From contig NZ_AP022599.1 of NCBI RefSeq assembly GCF_010725725.1, positions 124,001 to 188,000 of the forward strand: a stretch of 64,000 nt of DNA. The letters run 5' to 3'. Under the pieces are notes generated by a model, which was not told where the DNA came from, ran no database searches, and saw only the letters and a program-made list of their open reading frames with translations. Within the stretch, counting starts at the first letter, position 1; every line of letters begins with the position of its first letter. The position numbers and the translations under genes are program-made. This stretch comes from Mycolicibacterium pulveris (GTDB lineage Bacteria > Actinomycetota > Actinomycetes > Mycobacteriales > Mycobacteriaceae). Positions 2 through 12,883 of the stretch are shown in pieces.

Positions 2-1567
2 ATCTGCGGTATCTGCGGTGACAACCACGCGACGTGCTCCTGCTACACCCAGAACATGGCCTACGGCGTGCGCCCGCCGCATCTGGGTGAATGGCTGATC
101 AACCTCGGTGAGGCCGCCGAGTACATGTTCGACCACAACATCTTCCAGGAGAACCTGGTCGGCGTGGACTACTGCGAGAAGATGGTCTCGGAGACCAACC
201 CCGGCGTGCTGGCCAAGGCCGAGAACACCCAGGCGCCGCACGCCGGCATGCACGGCTACCACACGATCGCCGACATCATGCGGGCGCTCAACCCGTTCAC
301 CGGAGAGTTCTACCGCGAGGCGCTGCAGGTCAGCCGGTGGACGCGAGAGATGTTCTGCCTCATGGAAGGTCGGCACGTCCATCCGTCCACGCTCTATCCC
401 GGCGGCATCGGCGTCACCGCGACGGTCCAGCTGATGACCGACTACATGACACGGCTGATGCGGTACGTGGAGTTCATGAAGCGGGTCGTGCCCATGCACG
501 ACGACCTCTTCGACTTCTTCTACGAAGCCCTCCCCGGTTACGACCAGGTGGGCCTGCGCCGCACGTTGTTGGGCTGCTGGGGTTCCTTCCAGGACCCCGA
601 GGTGTGCAACTTCGAATACAAGGACATGGAGCGCTGGGGCGACGCCATGTTCGTCACGCCCGGCGTGGTGATCGACGGCAAGCTGCACACCCACTCGCTG
701 GTGGACATCAACCTCGGCATCCGAATCCTGTTGGGCCACTCGTACTACGACGACTGGACCGATCAGGAGATGTTCGTCAAGACCGATCCGCTGGGCAACC
801 CGATCGACCGGCGCCACCCGTGGAACCAGCACACCAACCCCAAACCGCAGAAGCGTGACTTCGACGGCAACTACAGCTGGGTGATGTCACCGCGCTGGTT
901 CGACGGCAAAGACCACCTCGCGCTCGATACGGGCGGTGGCCCGCTGGCGCGGCTGTGGTCGACCGCGCTGGCCGGTCTGGTGGACATCGGCTACGTCAAG
1001 GCCACCGGCAACAGCGTGCAGATCAACCTGCCGAAGACCGCGCTGACGGGGCCGGTCGAACTCGAATGGAAGATCCCGCAATACGGCAGCAACACCTTGG
1101 AGCGCAACCGCGCGCGCACCTATTTCCAGGCCTACGCCGCGGCGTGCGCGCTGCACTTCGCCGAGAAGGCGCTGGTGGAGATCCGCGCGGGCCGCACCAA
1201 GACGTGGGAGAAGTTCGAGGTGCCCGAGGAGGGCATCGGTTGCGGGTTCACCGAGGCCGTGCGCGGAGTGCTGAGCCACCACATGGTGATCCGCGACGGC
1301 AAGATCGCCAACTACCACCCGTATCCGCCCACCCCGTGGAACGCCAACCCGCGCGACAGCTACGGCACACCCGGGCCGTATGAAGACGCGGTGCAAGGCC
1401 AACCCATCTTCGAAGAGAACGACAGGGAGCATTTCAAGGGCATCGACATCATGCGCACGGTCCGCAGCTTCGACCCGTGTCTACCGTGCGGTGTGCACAT
1501 GTACCTGGGCAAGGGGAAGAGCCTGGACCTGCTGCACTCCCCCACCCAGTCCGTCACCGGGGAATAG
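2..1567 (+). CDS. hhyL: Group 1h [NiFe]-hydrogenase large subunit (5' truncated by window)
   Basis: Catalytic subunit of a high-affinity H2-oxidising hydrogenase. The reading frame is open from base 2 and opens inside the proximal nickel-binding L1 motif (ICGICGDNHATCSC); the true start lies left of the window, so the methionine at 56 is internal. The distal L2 motif DPCLPCGVH lies near the C-terminus, followed by a tail of about 22 residues (MYLGKGKS...) of the kind removed by a maturation protease, and a protease gene lies downstream at 5195. The L1 sequence and the GVHMYLGKGK tail are typical of group 1h enzymes such as mycobacterial Hyd2, which scavenges atmospheric H2 and feeds electrons to the respiratory chain. 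The small subunit gene should lie just upstream, out of view. Confidence 0.93.
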   Translation: MCGICGDNHATCSCYTQNMAYGVRPPHLGEWLINLGEAAEYMFDHNIFQENLVGVDYCEKMVSETNPGVLAKAENTQAPHAGMHGYHTIADIMRALNPFTGEFYREALQVSRWTREMFCLMEGRHVHPSTLYPGGIGVTATVQLMTDYMTRLMRYVEFMKRVVPMHDDLFDFFYEALPGYDQVGLRRTLLGCWGSFQDPEVCNFEYKDMERWGDAMFVTPGVVIDGKLHTHSLVDINLGIRILLGHSYYDDWTDQEMFVKTDPLGNPIDRRHPWNQHTNPKPQKRDFDGNYSWVMSPRWFDGKDHLALDTGGGPLARLWSTALAGLVDIGYVKATGNSVQINLPKTALTGPVELEWKIPQYGSNTLERNRARTYFQAYAAACALHFAEKALVEIRAGRTKTWEKFEVPEEGIGCGFTEAVRGVLSHHMVIRDGKIANYHPYPPTPWNANPRDSYGTPGPYEDAVQGQPIFEENDREHFKGIDIMRTVRSFDPCLPCGVHMYLGKGKSLDLLHSPTQSVTGE

Positions 1568-3111: not shown

Positions 3112-3752
3112 ATGACGTCAGCTTCGCCGTCCTCGACGTCGCGCCGGAGCCCTACTCGGTGACACCGATCCTGATGGCGCGCATCGGCATCGCGTGCATC
3201 GCCGAAGAACCGGTGCATGCGATCGCGCTGAAATGCCAGGTGCGCATCGACCCGTCGCGTCGCCCGTACGACGACGAGGAAGCCGCCGGGGTCGTGGAGC
3301 TGTTCGGGCCGCGAGAGCAGTGGCCCGCCAGCCAGCACACCTTCCTGTGGCAGCACGCCACCGCCATGGTGCCGGGCTTCACCGGCACCACCCAGATACA
3401 GTTGCCGATTTACTGCACGTATGACTTCGAAGTGGTGGCCGCCAAGTACCTACACGCGCTGCACGAGGGCGCCGTCCCGCTTCAGTTCCTGTTCAGCGGA
3501 ACGGTTTTCACCGCGGGCAACCGCGGGTTCGTGGTCCACCAGGTGCCGTGGGACCGCGACGAGCGCTACGACATGCCGGTGACCGTGTGGCACGACCTGA
3601 TGCGCCAGCACTTCCCCAACACCGGATGGCTGCGGCTAAACCACGACACCATCGAGGCGCTGGCCGCCTATCGCGCCGCGCGCGGACTGCTCGGGCTCGA
3701 CGACGCGATCACCTCCCTACTGGCGCAGGATTCGGCGAGGAGTGCACGGTGA
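3108..3752 (+). CDS. DUF6084 family hydrogenase-associated protein
   Basis: A 214-residue soluble protein. The ATG at 3108 sits in the ATGA overlap with the DUF5947 stop. Family features seen are the N-terminal FAVLDVAPEPYSVTP, the ALKCQVRIDPSRRPYDDEEA region, a PIYCTYDFEV core and a C-terminal VPWDRDERYDMPVTVW segment. No catalytic motif or signal peptide is visible. The family is known only from hydrogenase-type operons, so a role in assembly or stability of the group 1h complex is inferred from context. The stop overlaps the GTG of the next gene (GTGA). Confidence 0.8.
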   Translation: MNDVSFAVLDVAPEPYSVTPILMARIGIACIAEEPVHAIALKCQVRIDPSRRPYDDEEAAGVVELFGPREQWPASQHTFLWQHATAMVPGFTGTTQIQLPIYCTYDFEVVAAKYLHALHEGAVPLQFLFSGTVFTAGNRGFVVHQVPWDRDERYDMPVTVWHDLMRQHFPNTGWLRLNHDTIEALAAYRAARGLLGLDDAITSLLAQDSARSAR

Positions 3753-5080
3753 GCACTGACACGGCACAGGTGTGGCGCCAGGCCCGCGCCGTCGCCGATG
3801 CGGTGCTCTACGAGGGCTACCTGCTCTACCCGTATCGGGCCGGCTCGCGAAAGAACCAGTCACGCTGGCAGTTCGGCGTGCTTGGACCACCCCGCGCCGC
3901 CGACACCGGCATCGGCGAGGACAGCTCGCTGTCCGCCCAGGTGCTGCTGCGCCCACACGGGCTGCCGTGGATATCGGGGGCGGTCCGTTTCCTGCAGCTG
4001 CAACACCGCGGCCCCGAACGTGATCTCGGTGACGGCCGTTTCGCGCCGGTCGAGGAACTCGACGCGGGCGCCCAGACGTGGCTGCGCTGGGACGAGGCCG
4101 TCGAGCGCGAAATCCCCATCGACCGCGTCCCCGCCCCCAGCCTGCCCCGAACCGTCGAGATCTCGGTGCCCGCAGGACATGAGGTGGAGGTCGTGCACGG
4201 CGGCCGGCTCGTCCGCACCCGGCAGCAGCTGCGCGGTCTGCTCTCGATATCCGCCGAGCCCGATGGTGACTTGCTGCGGCTCACGTTCGACGTACGCAAC
4301 ACCGCAACTCCCGTCGCCGACAAGGACCAGGCCATCGCCACCTCACTGATCGGCACGCACCTGCTCATCGAGGTCAGCGGCGGCGAGTTCATCTCGTTGC
4401 TGGACCCGCCCGATGCGGCCGCCGACGCGGTGGCGCGGCTGCGTCAGCACCGGTGCTTTCCGGTGCTCGCCGGACCTCCGGGCAGCGGGCATCTCATGCT
4501 CGCGTCGCCGATCATCCTCTACGACCATCCGCAGATCGCCGAACAGAGCGCCGGCGCGCTCTACGACTCCACCGAGATCGACGAGATCCTCACGCTTCGG
4601 GTCATGACGATGACCGATGAGGAAAAGGCGCAAGCCCGCGCCACCGATCCGCTGGCCGCCCAGATCATCGACCGCTGCGACTCGATGTCGCCCGAGGCGA
4701 TGCTGAATCTGCATGGCGTGCTGCGTGATCCGCATGCCGACCTGGTTCCCGAGGTGCCCGCGGGCGTGAACTGGTGGGACCCGTCAGCCGATACCGCTGT
4801 GCGCCCGGAAACAGATGCGGTGCTGGTGAACGGCGTACCGGTGGCGCGCGGCAGCCGGGTACGGCTGCGGCCGTCGCGTCGGGCCGACGCACAGGATCTG
4901 TTCTACGCCAACCGGATCGCGCATGTCACCTCGGTGCACGAGGACGTCGACGGCGCTCAGCACATCGGCGTCGTGCTGGACGACGATCCGGCCGCCGACA
5001 TGCACGACTGGTACGGCCGGTCCCTGTACTTCGCCCCCGATGAAGTCGAACCGCTCGAAGGGAGTCCGAGATGGAAGTAG
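3749..5080 (+). CDS. Conserved hydrogenase-cluster protein of unknown function (443 aa)
   Basis: GTG start at 3749, overlapping the DUF6084 stop. I do not recognise a named domain. The N-terminus (VWRQARAVADAVLYEGYLLYPYRAGS) leads into a beta-rich central region, and the last 100 residues (VLVNGVPVARGSRVRLRPSRRADAQD cut short here) resemble a small beta-barrel. No signal peptide, membrane segment or cysteine cluster is visible, so it is probably cytoplasmic. Its place in the run of overlapping genes suggests a dedicated partner of DUF5947 and DUF6084. It overlaps the downstream 39-codon gene by 10 bases. Confidence 0.75.
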   Translation: MSTDTAQVWRQARAVADAVLYEGYLLYPYRAGSRKNQSRWQFGVLGPPRAADTGIGEDSSLSAQVLLRPHGLPWISGAVRFLQLQHRGPERDLGDGRFAPVEELDAGAQTWLRWDEAVEREIPIDRVPAPSLPRTVEISVPAGHEVEVVHGGRLVRTRQQLRGLLSISAEPDGDLLRLTFDVRNTATPVADKDQAIATSLIGTHLLIEVSGGEFISLLDPPDAAADAVARLRQHRCFPVLAGPPGSGHLMLASPIILYDHPQIAEQSAGALYDSTEIDEILTLRVMTMTDEEKAQARATDPLAAQIIDRCDSMSPEAMLNLHGVLRDPHADLVPEVPAGVNWWDPSADTAVRPETDAVLVNGVPVARGSRVRLRPSRRADAQDLFYANRIAHVTSVHEDVDGAQHIGVVLDDDPAADMHDWYGRSLYFAPDEVEPLEGSPRWK

Positions 5081-5190
5081 TGGGTTGGGTCGCCGTCGGT
5101 CTCGCCGCCGCCGTCGTGCTCGTCGCGGTCGTGCTGGGCATCAGGTCGATCCCAGATGCACAGCGCTACCTCAAGATGCGCCGGATGTAA
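5071..5190 (+). CDS. Small single-pass membrane protein (DUF6893-like, 39 aa)
   Basis: A 39-codon gene with ATG at 5071 inside the end of the preceding gene, preceded by GAAGGGAG as ribosome site. The product has one hydrophobic helix (residues about 4-25, WVAVGLAAAVVLVAVVLG) followed by a basic tail IPDAQRYLKMRRM. The size, helix and RYLKMRRM end fit the DUF6893 small-protein family. A role as a membrane anchor or small subunit of the hydrogenase complex is inference. It is too short for most gene callers. Confidence 0.7.
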   Translation: MEVVGWVAVGLAAAVVLVAVVLGIRSIPDAQRYLKMRRM

Positions 5191-5194
5191 CCAG

Positions 5195-5689
5195 GTGTCG
5201 GCGCCCCTGGGGATATTGGTTGCCGGGATCGGCAACATCTTCCTCGGCGACGACGGGTTCGGCTCCGAGGTGATCCGCCGTGTTCCCGAGCACGTCGCAG
5301 CGCCGGGAGTTCGCATCGTCGACTACGGAATCCGCGGCGTGCACCTGGCGTATGACCTGCTGGACGGATGTGCCGCCCTGGTGCTCGTCGACGCCATTCC
5401 GAGCCGAGGTGCGCCCGGTACGTTGCACGTCTTTGCCGCCGACCACGAAAGCCTCACCGCCGCTTCGGGTCTGGATGGGCACGCGATGGATCCGCAGGCG
5501 GTGTTCGCCACCCTGACCGCGTTGGGCGGCACCCCGCCCGACACGGTGGTGATCGGCTGCGAGGCAGCCAGCCTCGAGGAGGGCATCGGCCTGTCCGACG
5601 CGGTCGAGGCCGCCGTTCCCGGCGCTATACAGGCCGTGATCGACGCGGTCGCCGACCTCTCCGCGCGCTCCGCCGTGAGGGGAGGCTGA
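5195..5689 (+). CDS. [NiFe]-hydrogenase maturation protease
   Basis: HyaD/HybD-type endopeptidase that removes the C-terminal tail of the large subunit after Ni insertion. Motifs seen are GIGNIFLGDDGFG near the N-terminus, containing the conserved metal-binding Asp/Glu region, and the central RGVHLAYDLLDG with ALVLVDAIP. GTG at 5195, four bases after the preceding stop, is chosen because the MHSATS... extension further upstream overlaps the small membrane protein and carries no conservation. That gives 164 residues, the usual size. Its substrate is most likely HhyL, whose DPCLPCGVH-MYLG tail is intact. Confidence 0.88.
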   Translation: MSAPLGILVAGIGNIFLGDDGFGSEVIRRVPEHVAAPGVRIVDYGIRGVHLAYDLLDGCAALVLVDAIPSRGAPGTLHVFAADHESLTAASGLDGHAMDPQAVFATLTALGGTPPDTVVIGCEAASLEEGIGLSDAVEAAVPGAIQAVIDAVADLSARSAVRGG

Positions 5690-5692
5690 ACC

Positions 5693-5947
5693 ATGTGCCT
5701 CGGAATACCGGGACAGGTCGTGCACATGCTGGCCGGCTACGGCGATCAACTGGCCCTCGTCGACGTCGCAGGCGAGCAGCGCAAGGTCAACGTCGGGATG
5801 CTGCCGGAGGAGACGTTTCACCCCGGCGACTGGGTGATCATCCACATGGGCTTCGTCGTCGAGAAGACCGACAAGGCCGGTGCGGACGCGGCGATGTCGG
5901 GCCTGCAGCTGATGGGCCGGGGGCAGGACACCGAGGATCCGCCATGA
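5693..5947 (+). CDS. hypC: Hydrogenase maturation chaperone HypC (copy 1)
   Basis: An 84-residue protein beginning MCLGIPGQVV, with the invariant Cys2 that carries the iron precursor between HypD and the large subunit, and the GDWVIIHMGFVVEK motif near residues 45-60. It starts three bases after the protease stop and ends in an ATGA overlap with hypF. A second hypC lies at 11473; the tails after residue 62 differ strongly. Confidence 0.93.
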   Translation: MCLGIPGQVVHMLAGYGDQLALVDVAGEQRKVNVGMLPEETFHPGDWVIIHMGFVVEKTDKAGADAAMSGLQLMGRGQDTEDPP

Positions 5948-8220
5948 CGGGCAGGGTGAGGTTGCGTGTCGACGTGCACGGCGTGGTGCAGGGGGTGGGC
6001 TTCCGGCCGTTCGTGTACTCGTGCGCGGCGGCGCTGAACCTGTCCGGCTGTGTGCGCAACGACAGCTCCGGCGCGGTCATCGAAGTCGAGGGCGACGCCG
6101 ACGACGTCGAGAACTTCCTGCGCCGGCTGCGTGACCGGCCGCCCCCGCTGGCGGTGATCGAATCCGTCGAAACCAGGCCGGTGGCGCTGGTCGGCGGCAC
6201 CGGGTTCGTCATCTCCGACACGTCGCGCAGCGACGGCGGCCGGACCCTGACATCACCTGACGTCGCCATGTGCGCGCAGTGCGCCGCCGAGCAGGCCGAC
6301 CCCGCCGACCGGCGCTACCGGCACCCGTTCATCAACTGCACCAACTGCGGACCCCGCTTCACCATCATCGGCTCGCTGCCGTACGACCGCGCATCCACCA
6401 CGATGGCCGCGTTCGAGATGTGCGCTGAATGTGCCCGCGAATACCACGATCCCGACGACCGCAGGTTTCACGCCCAACCGATCAGCTGCCCGGACTGCGG
6501 GCCCACGCTGACCTACCGGGACGCATCCGGCAGGCCGTCGAACGGCGAGGCCGGGCTGCGCGCCGCCCGCGAACTGCTGCGCGACGGCGGTGTGCTGGCG
6601 GTCAAGGGCATCGGCGGCTACCACCTAGCCTGCGACGCGGGCAACGGCCGCGCGGTCGCCGACCTGCGGTTACGGAAACGCCGCGGGGACAAGCCGTTCG
6701 CCGTCATGGTGCCCGACATGGCCACCACCCGGGATATCGCCGAGGTGGACGACGCGTCGGCGCGGCTGCTGTCGGGTCCGCAGCGCCCGATCGTGCTGAT
6801 GCCGCGGCGGGTCGGCGCGCCCGTTGCCGAGGCCGTCGCGCCGCACAACCCGGACCTGGGTGTGCTGCTCGCCTACGCGCCGTTGCACCCGTTGCTGTTC
6901 GGGCTGGCCGGCGACCCGCCCGGACCGGCCGTGCTGGTGATGACCTCCGGCAACCTGGCCGGAGAGCCGATCTGCTTCGCCGACGAGGACGCGCTCGACC
7001 GGCTCGCGCACCTCGCCGACGGGTGGCTGATGCACGACCGCGCGATCCTGGTGCCGTGCGACGACTCCGTCATCCGCGCGGTGGCGGGCCGGGAGGTGCC
7101 GATCCGGCGCTCCCGCGGATATGCCCCGCTGCCGATCGCATTGCCCGTGCCGGTACCGCCCACCCTGGCTGTCGGCGCCGACCTCAAGAACACGATCGCG
7201 GTCGCCGACGGCAAGTACGCCTGGCTCAGCCAGCACATCGGCGACATGGACGTCCTGGCGACGGTCTCGGTGTTCGATGCGGCCCGGCGGCACCTGCAGG
7301 CGCTCACCGCGGTCACACCGCAGGTGCTGGTCGCCGACGCGCACCCGCTGTACCGGTCGACGCAGTGGGCCGACCGCAACGCCGGGCACCGGCCCGTCCG
7401 CACCGTCCAACACCATCACGCGCACATCGCCGCGGTGATGGCCGAACACGGCCTCGACGATTCCGCACAGGTGCTCGGCTTCGCGTTCGACGGAACGGGT
7501 TACGGCACCGACGGCGCGGTGTGGGGCGGAGAGGTACTGCTCGCCGGCTACAAGGGCGTCCAACGCCTCGCCCACCTCAAATACGTGCCCATGGCGGGCG
7601 GCGACGTCAGCGTGCGGCGCCCGTACCGCATGGCGCTCGCCCACCTGTGGGCCGCCGGCATCGCCTGGGATGACGAACTGGAACCCGTCGCCGCGTGTCC
7701 GCTCGACGAACGCGAAGTGCTGGCCCGTCAGCTCGACACCGGCTTCGGTTGCGTCTCCACTTCCAGCTTCGGTCGCCTGTTCGACGCGGTGTCGGCGCTG
7801 GCCGGGGTGCGCCAGGTGGTCGCCTACGAGGCACAGGCGGCGATCGAGCTGGAAGGGCTGTCTCGCGGCGCAGACTGCGGCACAGGGTCTTACACGTTCG
7901 CCCTGACCGACGGCGTGATCGATGCGGCGCCGGTGCTTCGGGCGGTGGTGGGCGACCGGCGTGCCGGGGTGAGCGCCGGGATCATCGGCGCCCGGTTCCA
8001 CCGCGCCGTCGCGGAGGTGATCGTGCGTATCGCGTGCGCCCACCGGGAGGCATCGCCGACGGTGGTGTTGTCGGGCGGGGTGTTCCAGAACCCGACCCTG
8101 TTGCGGCTTGCGCTGCAGGGACTGCAGGACAACGGTTTCGAGGCCATCACCCATCACCGGGTGCCGCCGAACGACGGCGGCATCGCGCTGGGTCAGTTGC
8201 TGGTGGGTAACTGCGGATGA
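5944..8220 (+). CDS. hypF: Carbamoyltransferase HypF
   Basis: Makes the thiocarboxamide on HypE from carbamoyl phosphate, the source of the CN ligands. ATG at 5944 in the ATGA overlap gives 758 residues, normal for HypF. Domains in order: acylphosphatase-like (VQGVGFRPFVY near residue 15-25), a double zinc finger with C-x2-C pairs (CAQC, CTNC, CAEC, CPDC; about residues 107-190), a YrdC-like domain (KGIGGYHLACDA, about 220-400), and a Kae1-like domain with VQHHHAHIAAVMAEHG and FDGTGYGTDGAVWGGE. All key motifs are present. It overlaps DUF6390 by ATGA. Confidence 0.95.
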   Translation: MTGRVRLRVDVHGVVQGVGFRPFVYSCAAALNLSGCVRNDSSGAVIEVEGDADDVENFLRRLRDRPPPLAVIESVETRPVALVGGTGFVISDTSRSDGGRTLTSPDVAMCAQCAAEQADPADRRYRHPFINCTNCGPRFTIIGSLPYDRASTTMAAFEMCAECAREYHDPDDRRFHAQPISCPDCGPTLTYRDASGRPSNGEAGLRAARELLRDGGVLAVKGIGGYHLACDAGNGRAVADLRLRKRRGDKPFAVMVPDMATTRDIAEVDDASARLLSGPQRPIVLMPRRVGAPVAEAVAPHNPDLGVLLAYAPLHPLLFGLAGDPPGPAVLVMTSGNLAGEPICFADEDALDRLAHLADGWLMHDRAILVPCDDSVIRAVAGREVPIRRSRGYAPLPIALPVPVPPTLAVGADLKNTIAVADGKYAWLSQHIGDMDVLATVSVFDAARRHLQALTAVTPQVLVADAHPLYRSTQWADRNAGHRPVRTVQHHHAHIAAVMAEHGLDDSAQVLGFAFDGTGYGTDGAVWGGEVLLAGYKGVQRLAHLKYVPMAGGDVSVRRPYRMALAHLWAAGIAWDDELEPVAACPLDEREVLARQLDTGFGCVSTSSFGRLFDAVSALAGVRQVVAYEAQAAIELEGLSRGADCGTGSYTFALTDGVIDAAPVLRAVVGDRRAGVSAGIIGARFHRAVAEVIVRIACAHREASPTVVLSGGVFQNPTLLRLALQGLQDNGFEAITHHRVPPNDGGIALGQLLVGNCG

Positions 8221-8930
8221 CTGGGTTGACGACGGGCCAGACGCTGTTCGGTCGGTACGCCTACCCGCCGAACGAACTGGGCTACTGCGGTCCGGCAGAC
8301 GGGGGCGGCACCTCCGGGCTGGCCTCGCGCGCCGCCGAGTTCGACGGCGCCTGGCCGTATCTGCGGGCCATCGCCGACGTGGTCGGCTCCGATGCGCTCG
8401 ATGACACGGTGGTCGAGAGCTACTGGGTGGGCGGTCCAGCGCTGGACAAGGTGGACCCGTCCGAACTGCTCTCCCGGCTGCGTTCGGCGTTCGCGGGCCA
8501 GATCACCGGCCTGCTCGACGTAATCTCTCCCAGCGCGGACGTGCTGGCGCACCACAGCTTCCACGTCTTCGTGGTCTACCCCTGGGTGCGTTTCCTCGGC
8601 CGCGACGCGAGCACCGCCGTGTCCGTCATGCAGAGCTGCCGCATCCGGTGGGGCACCGTCGAATCCGTCGACGACCAGCGCGCGGTGATCTCCTCCCGTC
8701 CCCTGCGGTTCGACGACGGCGGCCTGGTGCTCGGCGACCCGCAGGCCGAGACCGTGCACTGGGCGAAGCGTGACGTGTCGCTGACCTCCGCGCCGCTGCC
8801 CGGCACCGTCGTCTCGGCGCACTGGGACTGGGTGTGCGCAACCCTGACCGACACCGAATGCGCGGCGCTGGAAGACGCTACCCGCACCACGCTGAACCTC
8901 GTCAATTCACTTGTGGAAAAGGGGGGTTGA
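8217..8930 (+). CDS. DUF6390 family hydrogenase-associated protein
   Basis: A 237-residue protein, ATG overlapping the hypF stop. The conserved start is LFGRYAYPPNELGYCGPADG. A central segment, HHSFHVFVVYPWVRFL, and a C-terminal IRWGTVESVDDQRAVISSRPL segment resemble a small beta-barrel. Family name given from recall; no function is established. Placement between hypF and the SIS genes argues for a role in cofactor assembly or its control. Confidence 0.65.
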   Translation: MTGLTTGQTLFGRYAYPPNELGYCGPADGGGTSGLASRAAEFDGAWPYLRAIADVVGSDALDDTVVESYWVGGPALDKVDPSELLSRLRSAFAGQITGLLDVISPSADVLAHHSFHVFVVYPWVRFLGRDASTAVSVMQSCRIRWGTVESVDDQRAVISSRPLRFDDGGLVLGDPQAETVHWAKRDVSLTSAPLPGTVVSAHWDWVCATLTDTECAALEDATRTTLNLVNSLVEKGG

Positions 8931-8933
8931 TCG

Positions 8934-9674
8934 ATGACCGTCACCGCGCGACCGGGCGGGTCCTACATCGACGCCGAACTGTCCGCCGACCTCGCGGCGG
9001 CCGCGCTGGACATGGCCCGGCGATTCCACCAGGGCGCCACTCTCTGGGTCATCTCCCCGCAGTGGGAGCCGCACGCTCATCACGTCGCCGTCGAGTTCGT
9101 CCATCCGGTGATCATGGGCAAGCGTGCGCTACCGTCGGTCGCGCTCGTCGAACCCGATCCGGTGGCGCAGGCCCGGGTGGCCAGCCGACCCGGTGACCTG
9201 CTGATCGCGGTCGCGTCCGCCAGCGAACCCGCCGTCGTCGACGCGATGCGCCGCGCCGAGGCGTGGGGCGTGCTGACCCTGTGGATCGGATCCGGTCCAC
9301 GCCCGAAAGCCGGTGCCGCCGACCACATTCTGTGGATCGACTCCGAGGATCCGATGCTCCCGGCCACCGGGACGTTCGTGTTGATGTATCACCTGCTCTG
9401 GGAACTGACCCACGTCTGCTTCGAGCATCCCGGGCTGCTGAGATCCGCCGAGTGCACCGACGACGTCTGCATCACGTGCAGCGACCAGGGCCGGGTCGGC
9501 GAGGTGCTGCTCGAACCCAGCACCGCAACCGATCCGGCTCTCGTGCGCACCGCCCAGGGCGAGGAATGGGCGGACGTCACCCTGCTCGGTGGTGTCGCGG
9601 TCAACGACCTCGTGCTCGTCCACGCCGGGGCGGCCATCTCCCGCCTCGACATCGGCCAGGAGGTGAACCGATGA
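8934..9674 (+). CDS. SIS-like domain fused to HypC-like C-terminal domain
   Basis: A 246-residue fusion. Residues about 15-160 have the order of a SIS (sugar isomerase) fold, with DLLIAVASASEPAVVDAMRRAEAWGVLTLWIGSG matching the phosphosugar-binding loop region. Residues about 175-240 resemble HypC: CITCSDQGRVGEVL, then GGVAVNDLVLVHAGAAISRLD, which parallels the GDWVLVHVGFAMAKID of the neighbouring HypC. The N-terminal MC of true HypC is replaced by an internal C-x2-C. GGGGGG ribosome site just upstream of ATG 8934. The ATGA overlap joins it to a second SIS gene. It may hand over or sense a maturation intermediate, which is inference. Confidence 0.75.
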   Translation: MTVTARPGGSYIDAELSADLAAAALDMARRFHQGATLWVISPQWEPHAHHVAVEFVHPVIMGKRALPSVALVEPDPVAQARVASRPGDLLIAVASASEPAVVDAMRRAEAWGVLTLWIGSGPRPKAGAADHILWIDSEDPMLPATGTFVLMYHLLWELTHVCFEHPGLLRSAECTDDVCITCSDQGRVGEVLLEPSTATDPALVRTAQGEEWADVTLLGGVAVNDLVLVHAGAAISRLDIGQEVNR

Positions 9675-10345
9675 CAGAGCCCGAAAGCACCGGCTTCCTG
9701 TATCCGTTCATCGAATCCGAAGAGACCGACGCCACCAGCCTGCTCGACGATCTGAGCGCCTCGGCGCGCGGCAAGGCCGCCGAAAGCGCCCGGCTGCAAC
9801 GCGCCTCGCTCGACGAGTACGGCGCTGCACTGACCGCGGCGGGCACCGAGATGGCCGACCGATTCCGCCGCGGCGGGCGGCTCTACACCTTCGGAAACGG
9901 TGGCAGCTCCACCGACGCCGCGACGCTGGCGTCGCTGTTCAGCCGGCCGGCCCGGGGACGTCCGGTCGCCGCGTGGTCCCTTGCCGCCGACAACGCCGTG
10001 GTCACCGCGCTCGGCAACGACGTCGGCTTCGAGCTGATCTTCAAGCGCCAGATCATCGCCCACGCCCGCAGCCAGGACATCGCGATCGCGCTGTCCACGT
10101 CGGGCAATTCGGAGGATTTGATGACCGCCATCACCGAGGCCAAGCAGCGCGGCCTGCTGACCGTCGGATTCTCCGGCCACGACGGCGGACGGATGGCCGA
10201 CGCCGAGGATCTGGACTACTGCTTCACGGTGCGCTCGCAGAGCATCCACCGCATCCAGGAGAGCCACGCCATGCTCGGCTACCGCCTCTGGTCCGTCGCC
10301 CAGGAACACATGGCCCGTCCCCGCAATGGAGCGCACTCGACATGA
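9671..10345 (+). CDS. SIS domain protein, GmhA-like (phosphoheptose isomerase family)
   Basis: A 224-residue protein, ATG at 9671 in the overlap with the preceding SIS gene. It has the full GmhA layout: FGNGGSSTDAATLASLF loop near residue 77, ALSTSGNSEDLM loop near 141, and a C-terminal QSIHRIQESHAMLGYRLW helix holding the E and H residues that act in the isomerases. It therefore may still bind or convert a phosphorylated sugar. No heptose pathway genes are near; the context is hydrogenase maturation, so its substrate is unknown. hypE follows in an overlap. Confidence 0.82.
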   Translation: MTEPESTGFLYPFIESEETDATSLLDDLSASARGKAAESARLQRASLDEYGAALTAAGTEMADRFRRGGRLYTFGNGGSSTDAATLASLFSRPARGRPVAAWSLAADNAVVTALGNDVGFELIFKRQIIAHARSQDIAIALSTSGNSEDLMTAITEAKQRGLLTVGFSGHDGGRMADAEDLDYCFTVRSQSIHRIQESHAMLGYRLWSVAQEHMARPRNGAHST

Positions 10346-11448
10346 CCGGAACAGTCGACAGGGCAGCAAGCGCCGCGGAGCGCGAAGACCGCGCGCTGGA
10401 ACGCATCGACCGACAGCGGCAGCGACGGCCCCGCCTGCTCGACGACGTCGTGACGCTCGCACACGGCGCAGGCGGCAAGTCGTCGGCGACGCTGGTCGAC
10501 GCGGTGTTCCTCGAGGCGTTCCGCAACGCCGAACTCGAACAACTCGGTGACGCGGCCACGCTGCGTAGCGCATCGGGTGAGCGGATGGCGTTCTCCACCG
10601 ACTCGTATGTCGTTTCGCCGCGGCGCTTTCCGGGCGGCTCGATCGGTCACGTCGCCGTACACGGAACGATCAACGATCTCGCGGTATCGGGCGCGCGACC
10701 GCAGTGGCTGTCGGCGGCCTTCGTCATCGAAGAGGGCTTCCCGATCGCCGAACTGCGCGAGATCGTCGCCGACATGAGCGACGCGGCCACGGCTGCCGGT
10801 GTGCAGATCGTCACCGGTGACACCAAGGTGGTCGGCAGGGGCGCCGCCGACGGCGTCTACGTCTGTACGGCCGGGGTCGGTGTGATCCCCGAGGACAGAA
10901 GGCTTTCCCGAGATCTCGTGCAACCCGGTGACCGCGTGCTGCTCTCGGGGACCATCGGTGAACACGGCATGGCGGTCATGCTCGCCCGCGGCGATCTGGC
11001 CATCGACGCCGACATCGCCTCCGACACGGCGCCGGTGCACGAACTGGTGGAGATCCTGCTGGCGGCGGCGCCGTCGACCCGGTGGATGCGCGACGCCACC
11101 CGCGGCGGCGTCGGCACCGTGGCCAACGAGTTGGTCAAGGACCGGCCGTTCGCGCTGATCCTCGACGAGGACGCGATTCCCGTGGCGCCGCAGGTGCTCG
11201 GCGCCTGCGACCTGCTCGGCATCGATCCGCTGTATGTGGCCAACGAGGGCAAGTTCGTCGCCGTCGTCGCCGCCGCGGAAGCGGAGGCGGCCGTCTCCGC
11301 ACTGCGGGCCCATCCCCGGGGAGCCGACGCCGCCGTCGTCGGCGAGATCGTTCCCCAACCACCCGGAATCGTGGCGCTGCGAACATCTTTCGGCGGCAGC
11401 CGGATCGTCGACATGCTCGTCGGCGACCCGCTGCCGCGAATCTGCTGA
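10342..11448 (+). CDS. hypE: Hydrogenase expression/formation protein HypE
   Basis: Dehydrates the carbamoyl group on its C-terminal cysteine to thiocyanate for the CN ligands. The 368-residue protein ends in PRIC, the modified cysteine tail. The ATP-binding AHGAGGKSS motif lies near residue 41 and TRGGVGTVANE near 253. An N-terminal charged extension of about 30 residues precedes the usual HypE start. ATG at 10342 overlaps the SIS stop. Confidence 0.94.
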   Translation: MTGTVDRAASAAEREDRALERIDRQRQRRPRLLDDVVTLAHGAGGKSSATLVDAVFLEAFRNAELEQLGDAATLRSASGERMAFSTDSYVVSPRRFPGGSIGHVAVHGTINDLAVSGARPQWLSAAFVIEEGFPIAELREIVADMSDAATAAGVQIVTGDTKVVGRGAADGVYVCTAGVGVIPEDRRLSRDLVQPGDRVLLSGTIGEHGMAVMLARGDLAIDADIASDTAPVHELVEILLAAAPSTRWMRDATRGGVGTVANELVKDRPFALILDEDAIPVAPQVLGACDLLGIDPLYVANEGKFVAVVAAAEAEAAVSALRAHPRGADAAVVGEIVPQPPGIVALRTSFGGSRIVDMLVGDPLPRIC

Positions 11449-11755: not shown

Positions 11756-12883
11756 ATGAGGTTCGTCGACGAATTCCGGGACCCGGCGGCGGCCCGCGCT
11801 CTGGTCAAATCGATCACCGAGCTCGCCGCGGGTGACGAGTTCAAGTTCATGGAGGTGTGCGGCGGGCACACCCACACCATCTACCGGCACGGCATCGAGC
11901 ACCTGCTGCCCGAATCCGTCGAGCTGGTGCACGGGCCGGGATGTCCGGTGTGTGTGATCCCGATGGGCCGGATCGACGACGCGATGTGGCTGGCCGAACA
12001 GCCCGGCATCATCTTCACGACGTTCGGCGACATGATGCGCGTGCCGGGATCCGACGGCACCCTGATCGCGGCCAAGGCGCGCGGCGCCGACGTGCGGTTC
12101 GTCTACTCCCCCCTCGACGCACTCAAGGTGGCCGTCGACAATCCCGACCGTCACGTGGTGTTCTTCGCCGTCGGTTTTGAGACCACCGCGCCGTCGACCG
12201 CGGTGACGCTGGTGCGCGCCCGCGCGCTGGGCGTGACGAACTTCAGCGTGTTCTGTAACCACGTCACGATCGTTCCGCCGATCAAAGCCATCCTCGAGTC
12301 GCCCGATCTGCGGCTGTCGGGGTTTCTCGGGCCGGGTCACGTGTCGACGGTGGTGGGTCTGCGCCCGTATCGCTTCGTGCCCGAGGTGTACGGCAAGCCG
12401 ATCGTGGTCGCCGGGTTCGAGCCGCTGGACATCCTCGCCTCGGTGCACATGCTGCTGCAGCAGATCCGGGAGGGGCGGTGCGAGGTGGAGAACCAGTACA
12501 CCCGGGTGGTGCGCCCCGAAGGCAACACGCAGGCGTTGAAGCTGATGGCCGAGACGTTCGAGCTGCGTCCGCACTTCGAGTGGCGCGGCCTGGGGTTCAT
12601 CTCCCAGAGCGCGCTGAAGATTCACCGTGACTACGCGCAGTTCGACGCCGAGGCGATGTTCGAGATGCCCGGCGTGCGGGTCGCCGACCCCAAGGCGTGC
12701 CAGTGCGGCGAGGTCCTCAAAGGCGTGATCAAGCCGTGGGAGTGCAAGGTGTTCGGCACGGCGTGCACACCGGAGACCCCGATAGGCACCTGCATGGTGT
12801 CTGCCGAGGGCGCCTGCGCCGCGTACTACAACTTCGGCCGGTTGCACCGGCAAACAGCGCTGGTGCTGGGGCGTCGCGGCTAG
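11756..12883 (+). CDS. hypD: Hydrogenase formation protein HypD
   Basis: Scaffold on which the Fe(CN)2CO unit is built. The 375-residue protein shows the VCGGHTHTIYRHG motif near residue 39, HGPGCPVCV near 65, GFETTAPSTA near 138, and the C-terminal [4Fe-4S] region (CQCGEVLKG, CKVFGTACTPE, GTCMVS, GACAAYY). It is the last hyp gene of the operon; the next gene starts about 60 bases on. Confidence 0.95.
   Translation: MRFVDEFRDPAAARALVKSITELAAGDEFKFMEVCGGHTHTIYRHGIEHLLPESVELVHGPGCPVCVIPMGRIDDAMWLAEQPGIIFTTFGDMMRVPGSDGTLIAAKARGADVRFVYSPLDALKVAVDNPDRHVVFFAVGFETTAPSTAVTLVRARALGVTNFSVFCNHVTIVPPIKAILESPDLRLSGFLGPGHVSTVVGLRPYRFVPEVYGKPIVVAGFEPLDILASVHMLLQQIREGRCEVENQYTRVVRPEGNTQALKLMAETFELRPHFEWRGLGFISQSALKIHRDYAQFDAEAMFEMPGVRVADPKACQCGEVLKGVIKPWECKVFGTACTPETPIGTCMVSAEGACAAYYNFGRLHRQTALVLGRRG

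What the first reader, a model, noticed from the sequence alone, without database searches (positions are those of the whole stretch)
8934..10345. SIS-HypC fusion coupled to a GmhA-like SIS protein inside the hyp operon
Two SIS-fold proteins lie between hypF and hypE, coupled by overlaps. The first ends in a HypC-like domain (GGVAVNDLVLVHAGAAISRLD) whose N-terminal MC is replaced by CITC. The second keeps the full phosphosugar loops and the C-terminal His of GmhA. Canonical hydrogenase maturation has no sugar-phosphate step. Inference: a phosphosugar or similar ligand may gate or supply maturation (for example control of the CO ligand source or sensing of carbon state), or the SIS fold was recruited to hold the iron precursor.
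Basis: partly seen in the sequence, partly recalled or inferred. Interest (0 to 1): 0.72.

Follow-up and report, generated by a model that had tools for sequence, protein, structure and literature searches.

The report
Split sugar-isomerase module in hydrogenase maturation
Two neighbouring genes in a hydrogenase-assembly operon appear to encode the two halves of one sugar-phosphate-isomerase-like metal site, one half fused to a HypC-like domain, and such genes recur with one branch of the assembly protein HypD in several bacterial phyla, though their chemical role is unknown.

Summary
The two genes are real and overlap by 4 bp (ATGA), but a DUF6390 gene lies between hypF and the first. SIS1 (8934-9674) is a diverged GmhA-fold domain fused to a HypC-like barrel (HypC*). 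SIS2 (9671-10345) keeps the phosphosugar loops but only one of four zinc-site residues; the "C-terminal His of GmhA" is Tyr204 here. In solved GmhA the zinc takes His, Glu and His from one chain and Gln from its neighbour. SIS1 has the His/Glu/His and SIS2 the Gln, invariant or nearly so in 230 SIS1/SIS2 pairs. The second possible site (SIS1 Gln with SIS2 Asp/Asp) is present as a unit in 133 pairs and absent as a unit in the other 96 readable ones. Five Pseudomonadota operons read, Cupriavidus necator H16 among them, carry one SIS protein with all these residues. In a tree of 99 chosen HypD sequences, SIS and HypC* occur only in one clade (43 and 46 of 52 rows; 0 of 47 outside). SIS1 and SIS2 probably form one composite metal/phosphosugar site docked on the HypC/HypD scaffold. 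The reaction is unknown; a carbonyl-ligand role is testable but not clearly supported by the HypX distribution. The association has been noticed in print; I found no interpretation.

The parts
8934..9437 (+). SIS1: diverged GmhA-fold SIS domain (residues 1-168) that keeps the zinc-site His50, Glu54 and His153, but not the Gln (Thr145 by the alignment) and not the phosphosugar loops
   Evidence: fold and profile; residues
9468..9674 (+). HypC* domain (from Cys179): CITCSD motif followed by a HypC-like beta barrel, fused to SIS1
9671..10345 (+). SIS2: GmhA-like protein with intact GNGGS and STSGNS loops and the trans Gln196; the His64/Glu68/His183 places are Thr85/Leu89/Tyr204
10342..11448 (+). 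hypE, start overlaps SIS2 stop by 4 bp
   Evidence: TIGR02124
11473..11754 (+). hypC (canonical, MCLGIPG)
11756..12883 (+). hypD, of the SIS/HypC*-associated clade
   Evidence: PF01924 match; trees
8217..8930 (+). DUF6390 gene between hypF and SIS1; in other loci it can lie after hypD
5944..8220 (+). hypF
   Evidence: matches the annotated hypF of C. necator pHG1
5693..5947 (+). second canonical hypC/hupF-type gene, next to the protease
5156..5689 (+). hydrogenase maturation protease
56..1567 (+). Hhy [NiFe]-hydrogenase large subunit, the hydrogenase of this operon (503-aa part inside the window; 'Hhy' and 'group 1h' are recalled labels)

Best explanation
SIS1-HypC* and SIS2 are two halves of one [NiFe]-hydrogenase maturation factor. 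Shown: both halves have the GmhA fold or profile; their conserved residues are complementary; single-chain relatives in other hyp operons carry all of them; and among the HypD sequences examined the genes go with one HypD clade. Inferred: SIS1 and SIS2 assemble as a hetero-oligomer (one chain in many other actinobacteria and in Thermus) with a metal held by SIS1 His50/Glu54/His153 and SIS2 Gln196, and a phosphorylated ligand gripped by the SIS2 loops. Inferred: HypC* docks this site on HypD or on the HypC/HypD scaffold. Most likely, but not shown: it is a metal-dependent enzyme acting on a sugar phosphate (enediol chemistry, as in GmhA), and its turnover supplies or licenses one step of Fe(CN)2CO assembly, with ligand or iron delivery as candidates.
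For: Composite site: N. gonorrhoeae GmhA binds zinc through H61, E65 and H183 of one monomer and Q175 of the neighbour (PMC5387315, passages read); B. pseudomallei GmhA uses H64, E68, Q175 and H183, called completely conserved among orthologues (PMC5705639, passages). In 80 named loci SIS1 His50, Glu54 and His153 are 80 of 80 and the Gln place (residue 145) is Thr in 80 of 80; SIS2 Gln196 is 79 of 79 readable. Covariation over 230 pairs: SIS1 Gln with SIS2 Asp/Asp in 133, neither in 96 of 97 (one SIS2 unreadable); SIS1 Glu 229 of 230, SIS2 Gln 229 of 229 readable (there the Gln place of the window-like rows reads mostly Ala, a gap-placement difference, never Gln). Single SIS proteins between hypC and hypD in the 5 Pseudomonadota plasmid records that I opened carry H, E, Q, H and both loops, 5 of 5. 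Fusion logic: SIS1-SIS2 tandem in one chain (the 120 listed relatives); HypC* separate between hypC and hypD, or fused to SIS1. Tandem model pLDDT 85, pTM 0.87. HypD tree: SIS in 43 and HypC* in 46 of 52 rows of one clade (99/89 support), both 0 of 47 outside; the HypC* motif check agrees. M. smegmatis MSMEG_2706 (gmhA), next to its hypE, is listed with the hyp/hydrogenase genes in an 'Oxygen Limitation' expression table (PMC5445863, passage).
Against: No biochemistry, and no complex could be predicted with coordinates. The residue split along the chain boundary alone is 2 of 16 possible partitions, and the covariation counts related rows: it may rest on one or two evolutionary events. SIS is missing from 9 of the 52 clade rows, so it may be dispensable with that HypD; some of these are short contigs. 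SIS2 has lost the acidic pair and often the His, so a purely binding role is possible. The SIS1-HypC* model is only pLDDT 71, with residues 57-72 and 168-184 under 50. The tree rows were chosen, not drawn at random.
Confidence: 0.6

Rival explanations
1. Phosphosugar sensor: SIS1:SIS2 binds a sugar phosphate without turnover and gates the HypC*/HypD step according to carbon state, as SIS domains do in RpiR-type regulators and GKRP (functions recalled).
For: SIS2 keeps the binding loops in 79 of 79 readable sequences while losing acid/base residues. The tandem model also aligns along its length to GKRP and GlmS-type tandem SIS proteins (TM by query about 0.5-0.6). Absence of SIS from 9 of 52 rows of the HypD clade fits a regulator better than an essential enzyme.
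Against: The SIS1 His/Glu/His set is invariant in 80 of 80 named loci, 118 of 118 listed relatives and, but for one Glu, 120 of 120 tandems, and the metal set of single SIS proteins is complete in 5 of 5: more than a sensor needs.
Confidence: 0.2
2. Metal carrier: the SIS fold was recruited to hold iron, which is passed through the HypC* CxTC motif to HypC/HypD; no sugar chemistry.
For: Extra His next to the site: His57 80 of 80, His160 and His165 79 of 80 in the named loci and all 118 of 118 in listed relatives; His57 and His160 counterparts in 5 of 5 single SIS proteins; Ser at the His57 place in B. pseudomallei GmhA. Cys179, Cys182 and Asp184 are invariant (80 of 80).
Against: The phosphosugar loops of SIS2 would not be kept invariant (79 of 79 readable; loop residues checked in tandems 120 of 120).
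Confidence: 0.1
3. Hitch-hiker: a heptose or envelope-sugar isomerase that happens to sit in the operon.
For: Sources call tandem and separate-SIS1 relatives 'D-sedoheptulose 7-phosphate isomerase', and M. smegmatis MSMEG_2706 is annotated gmhA.
Against: SIS2 falls below the cut-offs of the four heptose-isomerase models it matches (for example 107 bits against 209). SIS1 is fused to a HypC-like domain. The genes lie in hyp operons in Actinomycetota, Pseudomonadota, Deinococcota and Bacillota records. Exceptions: tandem SIS away from hyp genes in L040 and L046.
Confidence: 0.05

Closest known systems
GmhA, sedoheptulose-7-phosphate isomerase (SIS_2 family; PDB 2x3y, 5lu6, 5i01)
   Same: Fold, phosphosugar loops (SIS2), His/Glu/His/Gln metal site once both proteins are counted, site shared between chains
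   Different: Residues split over two diverged subunits; HxxxEFxHPV and YHxLWxLxH signatures with extra His; fused or linked to HypC*; in hyp operons
HypC/HybG/HupF chaperones (PF01455)
   Same: Barrel homologous to solved HypC (E 7e-8); operon neighbours of hypD
   Different: No N-terminal Met-Cys; internal CxTC ahead of the barrel (CxVC in some relatives); an added copy beside two canonical HypC in this operon
HypX, CO-forming maturation protein of aerobic hydrogenases
   Same: An extra maturation factor present in some hyp operons; in L056 and L202 it lies upstream of hhyS
   Different: Unrelated protein (formyltransferase plus enoyl-CoA hydratase-like domains, PMC12134894 passage); the 3 HypX rows lie outside the SIS-bearing HypD clade; C. 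necator pHG1 has one operon of each kind
Published notices of the association
   Same: PMC5900883 Fig. 5B legend marks a putative phosphoheptose isomerase (gmhA) and a glutaredoxin at hydrogenase loci of Acidobacteria (passage); PMC12727194 has a table row 'SIS domain', number 68, among gene sets near [NiFe]-hydrogenases (passage); PMC3231954 links GmhA with HypD/HypE by a network method (passages)
   Different: In the passages I read none mentions SIS1, HypC*, the residue split, the HypD clade or a mechanism; the papers were not read whole

Membership tests
GmhA (sedoheptulose-7-phosphate isomerase) | SIS fold with GmhA as nearest solved relative | tested here: met
GmhA (sedoheptulose-7-phosphate isomerase) | Zn ligands H64, E68, Q175 and H183 all in one polypeptide | tested here: not met
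   Window SIS2 lacks three of four, window SIS1 lacks one; met for the 5 single-SIS proteins of Pseudomonadota
GmhA (sedoheptulose-7-phosphate isomerase) | Score over curated equivalog cut-off | tested here: not met
   SIS2: TIGR00441 107 bits against 209; PRK13936 114 against 276
GmhA (sedoheptulose-7-phosphate isomerase) | Turnover of sedoheptulose 7-phosphate | not testable with these tools
   needs assay
HypC/HupF chaperone | HypC-like beta barrel | tested here: met
   Profile A7 finds HypC 3vyr/2z1c at E 7e-8; five strands, residues 187-238, in the model; no HypC among the rows listed by the fold searches
HypC/HupF chaperone | N-terminal Met-Cys with the Fe-binding Cys (motif recalled) | tested here: not met
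   Internal CxTC; the Cys place reads Asp184 by my extension of the alignment
HypC/HupF chaperone | Pfam gathering score | tested here: not met
   26.4 bits against 28.5 for the window protein; but the precomputed Pfam column lists PF01455 for it and for most of the 120 listed relatives
HypX | Formyltransferase plus enoyl-CoA hydratase-like protein | tested here: not met
   C. necator HypX finds no match in the window's genome at E<=1e-10 (which has positive genomes)
[NiFe]-hydrogenase hyp maturation operon | hypA-hypF with structural genes and protease | tested here: met

The most novel reading that the evidence does not exclude
The SIS module is a second, HypX-independent route to the carbonyl ligand (or another small precursor) of Fe(CN)2CO. 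A metal-bound enediol made from a sugar phosphate on SIS1:SIS2 would be cleaved so that the fragment passes through HypC* to the iron on the matching HypD clade. C. necator would then carry both routes on one plasmid, one per hyp set.
Probability: 0.13. Interest if true: 0.92.

Novelty: new variant of a known kind. Interest (0 to 1): 0.66.

Why it matters
[quoted passage not shown] a word search found 'sugar' nowhere in its main text. A conserved metal/phosphosugar site tied to one HypD clade, found beside the Hhy hydrogenase (Hyd2 of M. smegmatis takes up atmospheric H2; PMC4109961 abstract in a search listing) and in C. necator H16, gives a defined gene to delete and label. It also matters for making such hydrogenases in foreign hosts: a matching hyp set may need its SIS and HypC* genes.

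Tried and rejected
1. HypX replacement (SIS = CO source). One genome, G086, has both. In 394 genomes of the class, 77 have the Hhy large subunit at E<=1e-100: SIS1 profile match at E<=1e-30 in 20 (for G401 the match is its SIS2; a SIS1 frame was then read next to it), HypX in 24, both in 2, neither in 35. Independence would give 6.2 overlaps, without correction for kinship. Against the idea: the 35 with neither; loci of the clade without SIS whose genomes also gave no HypX (G165, G172, G175; G288; G342, G378); and intact His and Glu of SIS1 in the two genomes with both. In its favour: no annotated locus holds both HypX and SIS. Not supported, not excluded.

2. Aerobe-only module: COX1 is in 56 of the 153. 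SIS1 is in 26 of those 56 and in 10 of the 97 without. Associated, not exclusive.

3. SIS1 degraded where HypX is present: checked in G401 and G585; His and Glu are intact. Rejected.

4. HypC* as a fusion-only oddity: rejected; it is a separate gene in many loci and is found without SIS.

5. Literature: ten searches gave no paper that I saw interpret the SIS genes of hyp operons; listings were not all opened (PMC13374853, the only paper, was not), and most subscription papers are not held.

6. Fold searches list only SIS-fold proteins for the SIS1-HypC* model; HypC does not appear in the listed rows, so the HypC assignment rests on sequence profiles.

Full report
What is there. The window is positions 124001-188000 of one chromosome; the closest listed relatives of the SIS1 protein with a name are in Mycolicibacterium elephantis (92%). 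The first 12.9 kb is an uptake-hydrogenase operon: Hhy large subunit (56-1567 is the part inside the window), NifU/Rieske protein, DUF5947, DUF6084, a 510-aa conserved protein, protease, a first HypC-type gene, hypF, DUF6390, SIS1-HypC*, SIS2, hypE, hypC, hypD. hypA, hypB and the small subunit lie just upstream, outside the window. SIS1-HypC* is 8934-9674 and SIS2 is 9671-10345, with ATGA overlaps at both ends of SIS2.

SIS2. It resembles GmhA (E 3e-27) and keeps GNGGS and STSGNS, but the zinc-site places read Thr85, Leu89, Gln196 and Tyr204.

The halves are complementary. In GmhA the zinc is held by two His and one Glu of one chain and a Gln of the neighbouring chain (PMC5387315, passages; PMC5705639, passages). 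SIS1 supplies the first three, and SIS2 the Gln and the phosphosugar loops. In 80 named loci, SIS1 His50, Glu54, His57 and His153 and the HypC* residues Cys179, Thr181, Cys182 and Asp184 are 80 of 80. SIS2 Gln196, Thr85, Leu89 and all loop residues checked are 79 of 79 readable; Tyr204 is Tyr 72, Phe 6, His 1. In 118 listed relatives of SIS1-HypC*, His50, Glu54, His57, His153, His160, His165, Cys179, Cys182 and Asp184 are 118 of 118. In 120 tandem relatives the corresponding first-half His/Glu/Gln/His are 120, 119, 120 and 120 of 120, and the second-half loop residues checked are 120 of 120.

A second test. If the pair works like GmhA, there could be a reciprocal site made of SIS2's first-chain residues and SIS1's Gln. 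SIS1 lacks the Gln in 97, and SIS2 lacks Asp/Asp in all 96 of those that could be read. The first site stays; the second is present or absent as a unit. Rows are related, so this is not 230 independent tests; on the first HypD tree the state without the second site falls in two groups, but the nodes between are weak.

One protein elsewhere. Tandem SIS1-SIS2 proteins (about 410 aa) replace the two genes in many actinobacterial genomes, in Thermus thermophilus SG0.5JP17-16 and in Sulfobacillus acidophilus, where the gene is unannotated and its frame is broken. A single SIS protein of 214-230 aa lies between hypC and hypD in Cupriavidus necator H16 pHG1, Afipia carboxidovorans pHCG3, Mesorhizobium huakuii pMHb, Bradyrhizobium guangxiense and Sphingopyxis alaskensis. 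These five were opened among 100 plasmid records matched by the tandem query; of the 25 listed, the last six match only its second half and may be ordinary GmhA, and 75 were not listed. All 5 carry the complete set: both loops, His, Glu, Gln, His, and the EFxHP and WDLxH signatures with the extra His. The simplest history is duplication of a complete single SIS followed by division of labour; I did not test this with a tree of the SIS domains.

Link to HypD. In a tree of 92 HypD sequences, one clade of 45 rows (support 100/98) holds every row with SIS or HypC*: 36 with both and 7 with HypC* only; of the 2 labelled 'none', one (L188) has a HypC* under my 60-bit cut-off. With the Pseudomonadota, Thermus and Sulfobacillus rows added (99 rows, L188 relabelled) the clade has 52 rows (99/89): SIS in 43, HypC* in 46, one with neither; 0 of 47 outside have either. 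The 5 single-SIS rows form a group (100/99) beside the other 47 (98/90). Some outside rows match the HypC* profile at up to 56 bits; the two strongest (L173, L177) begin MCLAVP like ordinary HypC, and none of the two best profile hits of any outside locus has the C-x-(T/V)-C-x-D motif, while the HypC* rows re-read do. The loci were chosen, not drawn at random: many SIS-negative genomes were picked, and 14 named rows come from a SIS search. C. necator carries both kinds of hyp set on one plasmid: one with HypX and one with SIS.

What the pattern says about function. The HypC* fusion, the operon place and the HypD link put the module at the HypC/HypD scaffold, where Fe(CN)2CO is built (review PMC12134894, passages). 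The conserved metal set argues for chemistry; the loops argue for a phosphorylated ligand. Which ligand, and what is made, cannot be read from sequence. Replacement of HypX is the boldest reading. But 35 of 77 Hhy genomes have neither in the genome, and 2 have both; in the phylum sample, 1 of 36 SIS1 genomes also has HypX. L033 is a natural case of loss: SIS2 is absent from the locus, the SIS1 part is reduced and has lost the His/Glu set, yet HypC* is kept.

Known before. The co-occurrence has been drawn or listed (PMC5900883 figure legend; PMC12727194 table row; PMC3231954), and M. smegmatis gmhA (MSMEG_2706), beside hypE, appears in a table with its hydrogenase genes (PMC5445863). None of the passages I read interprets it. 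The SIS1 assignment, the residue split, HypC*, the covariation and the HypD clade are, to my searches, not in print in the held library.

Noticed in passing
L056:3172-4953 (G023) and L202 (G633): In Hhy operons of two unnamed same-class genomes a full-length HypX gene lies upstream of hhyS; their HypD is outside the SIS clade and they have no SIS or HypC*.
   Followed up: partly
L034:5280-5639 (G150): A same-genus genome keeps a hyp operon with SIS1-HypC*, SIS2 and hypD, but its hhyS looks like a 119-aa remnant joining two parts, and no Hhy large subunit was found at E<=1e-100.
   Followed up: no
L205:10121-10381 and L206:10120-10347: A small glutaredoxin-like gene (annotated Uxx-star in Thermus) sits directly after the tandem SIS gene in Thermus and Sulfobacillus; PMC5900883 also draws a glutaredoxin at Acidobacteria hydrogenase loci.
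   Followed up: no
L033:9082-9717 (G288): A same-family genome's locus has no SIS2 and keeps a shortened SIS1 without the His/Glu motif, still fused to an intact HypC*.
   Followed up: partly
L054, L055, L060, L188, L189: HypC* genes occur with the matching HypD but without any SIS gene in the locus, so HypC* seems to have a role of its own.
   Followed up: partly
window 8217-8930: The DUF6390 gene changes place: between hypF and SIS1 in the window and many Mycobacterium loci, after hypD in many others. Function unknown.
   Followed up: no
window 3548-5080: A 510-aa frame, conserved in Hhy operons (called DUF6893like in my scripts; a working label, not a test result), of unknown function.
   Followed up: no
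L040 and L046 (G092, G189): Tandem SIS genes with no hyp gene in the 20 kb read around them, while HypD lies on another contig: apart from short contigs, the only loci read where the module is away from hyp genes.
   Followed up: no
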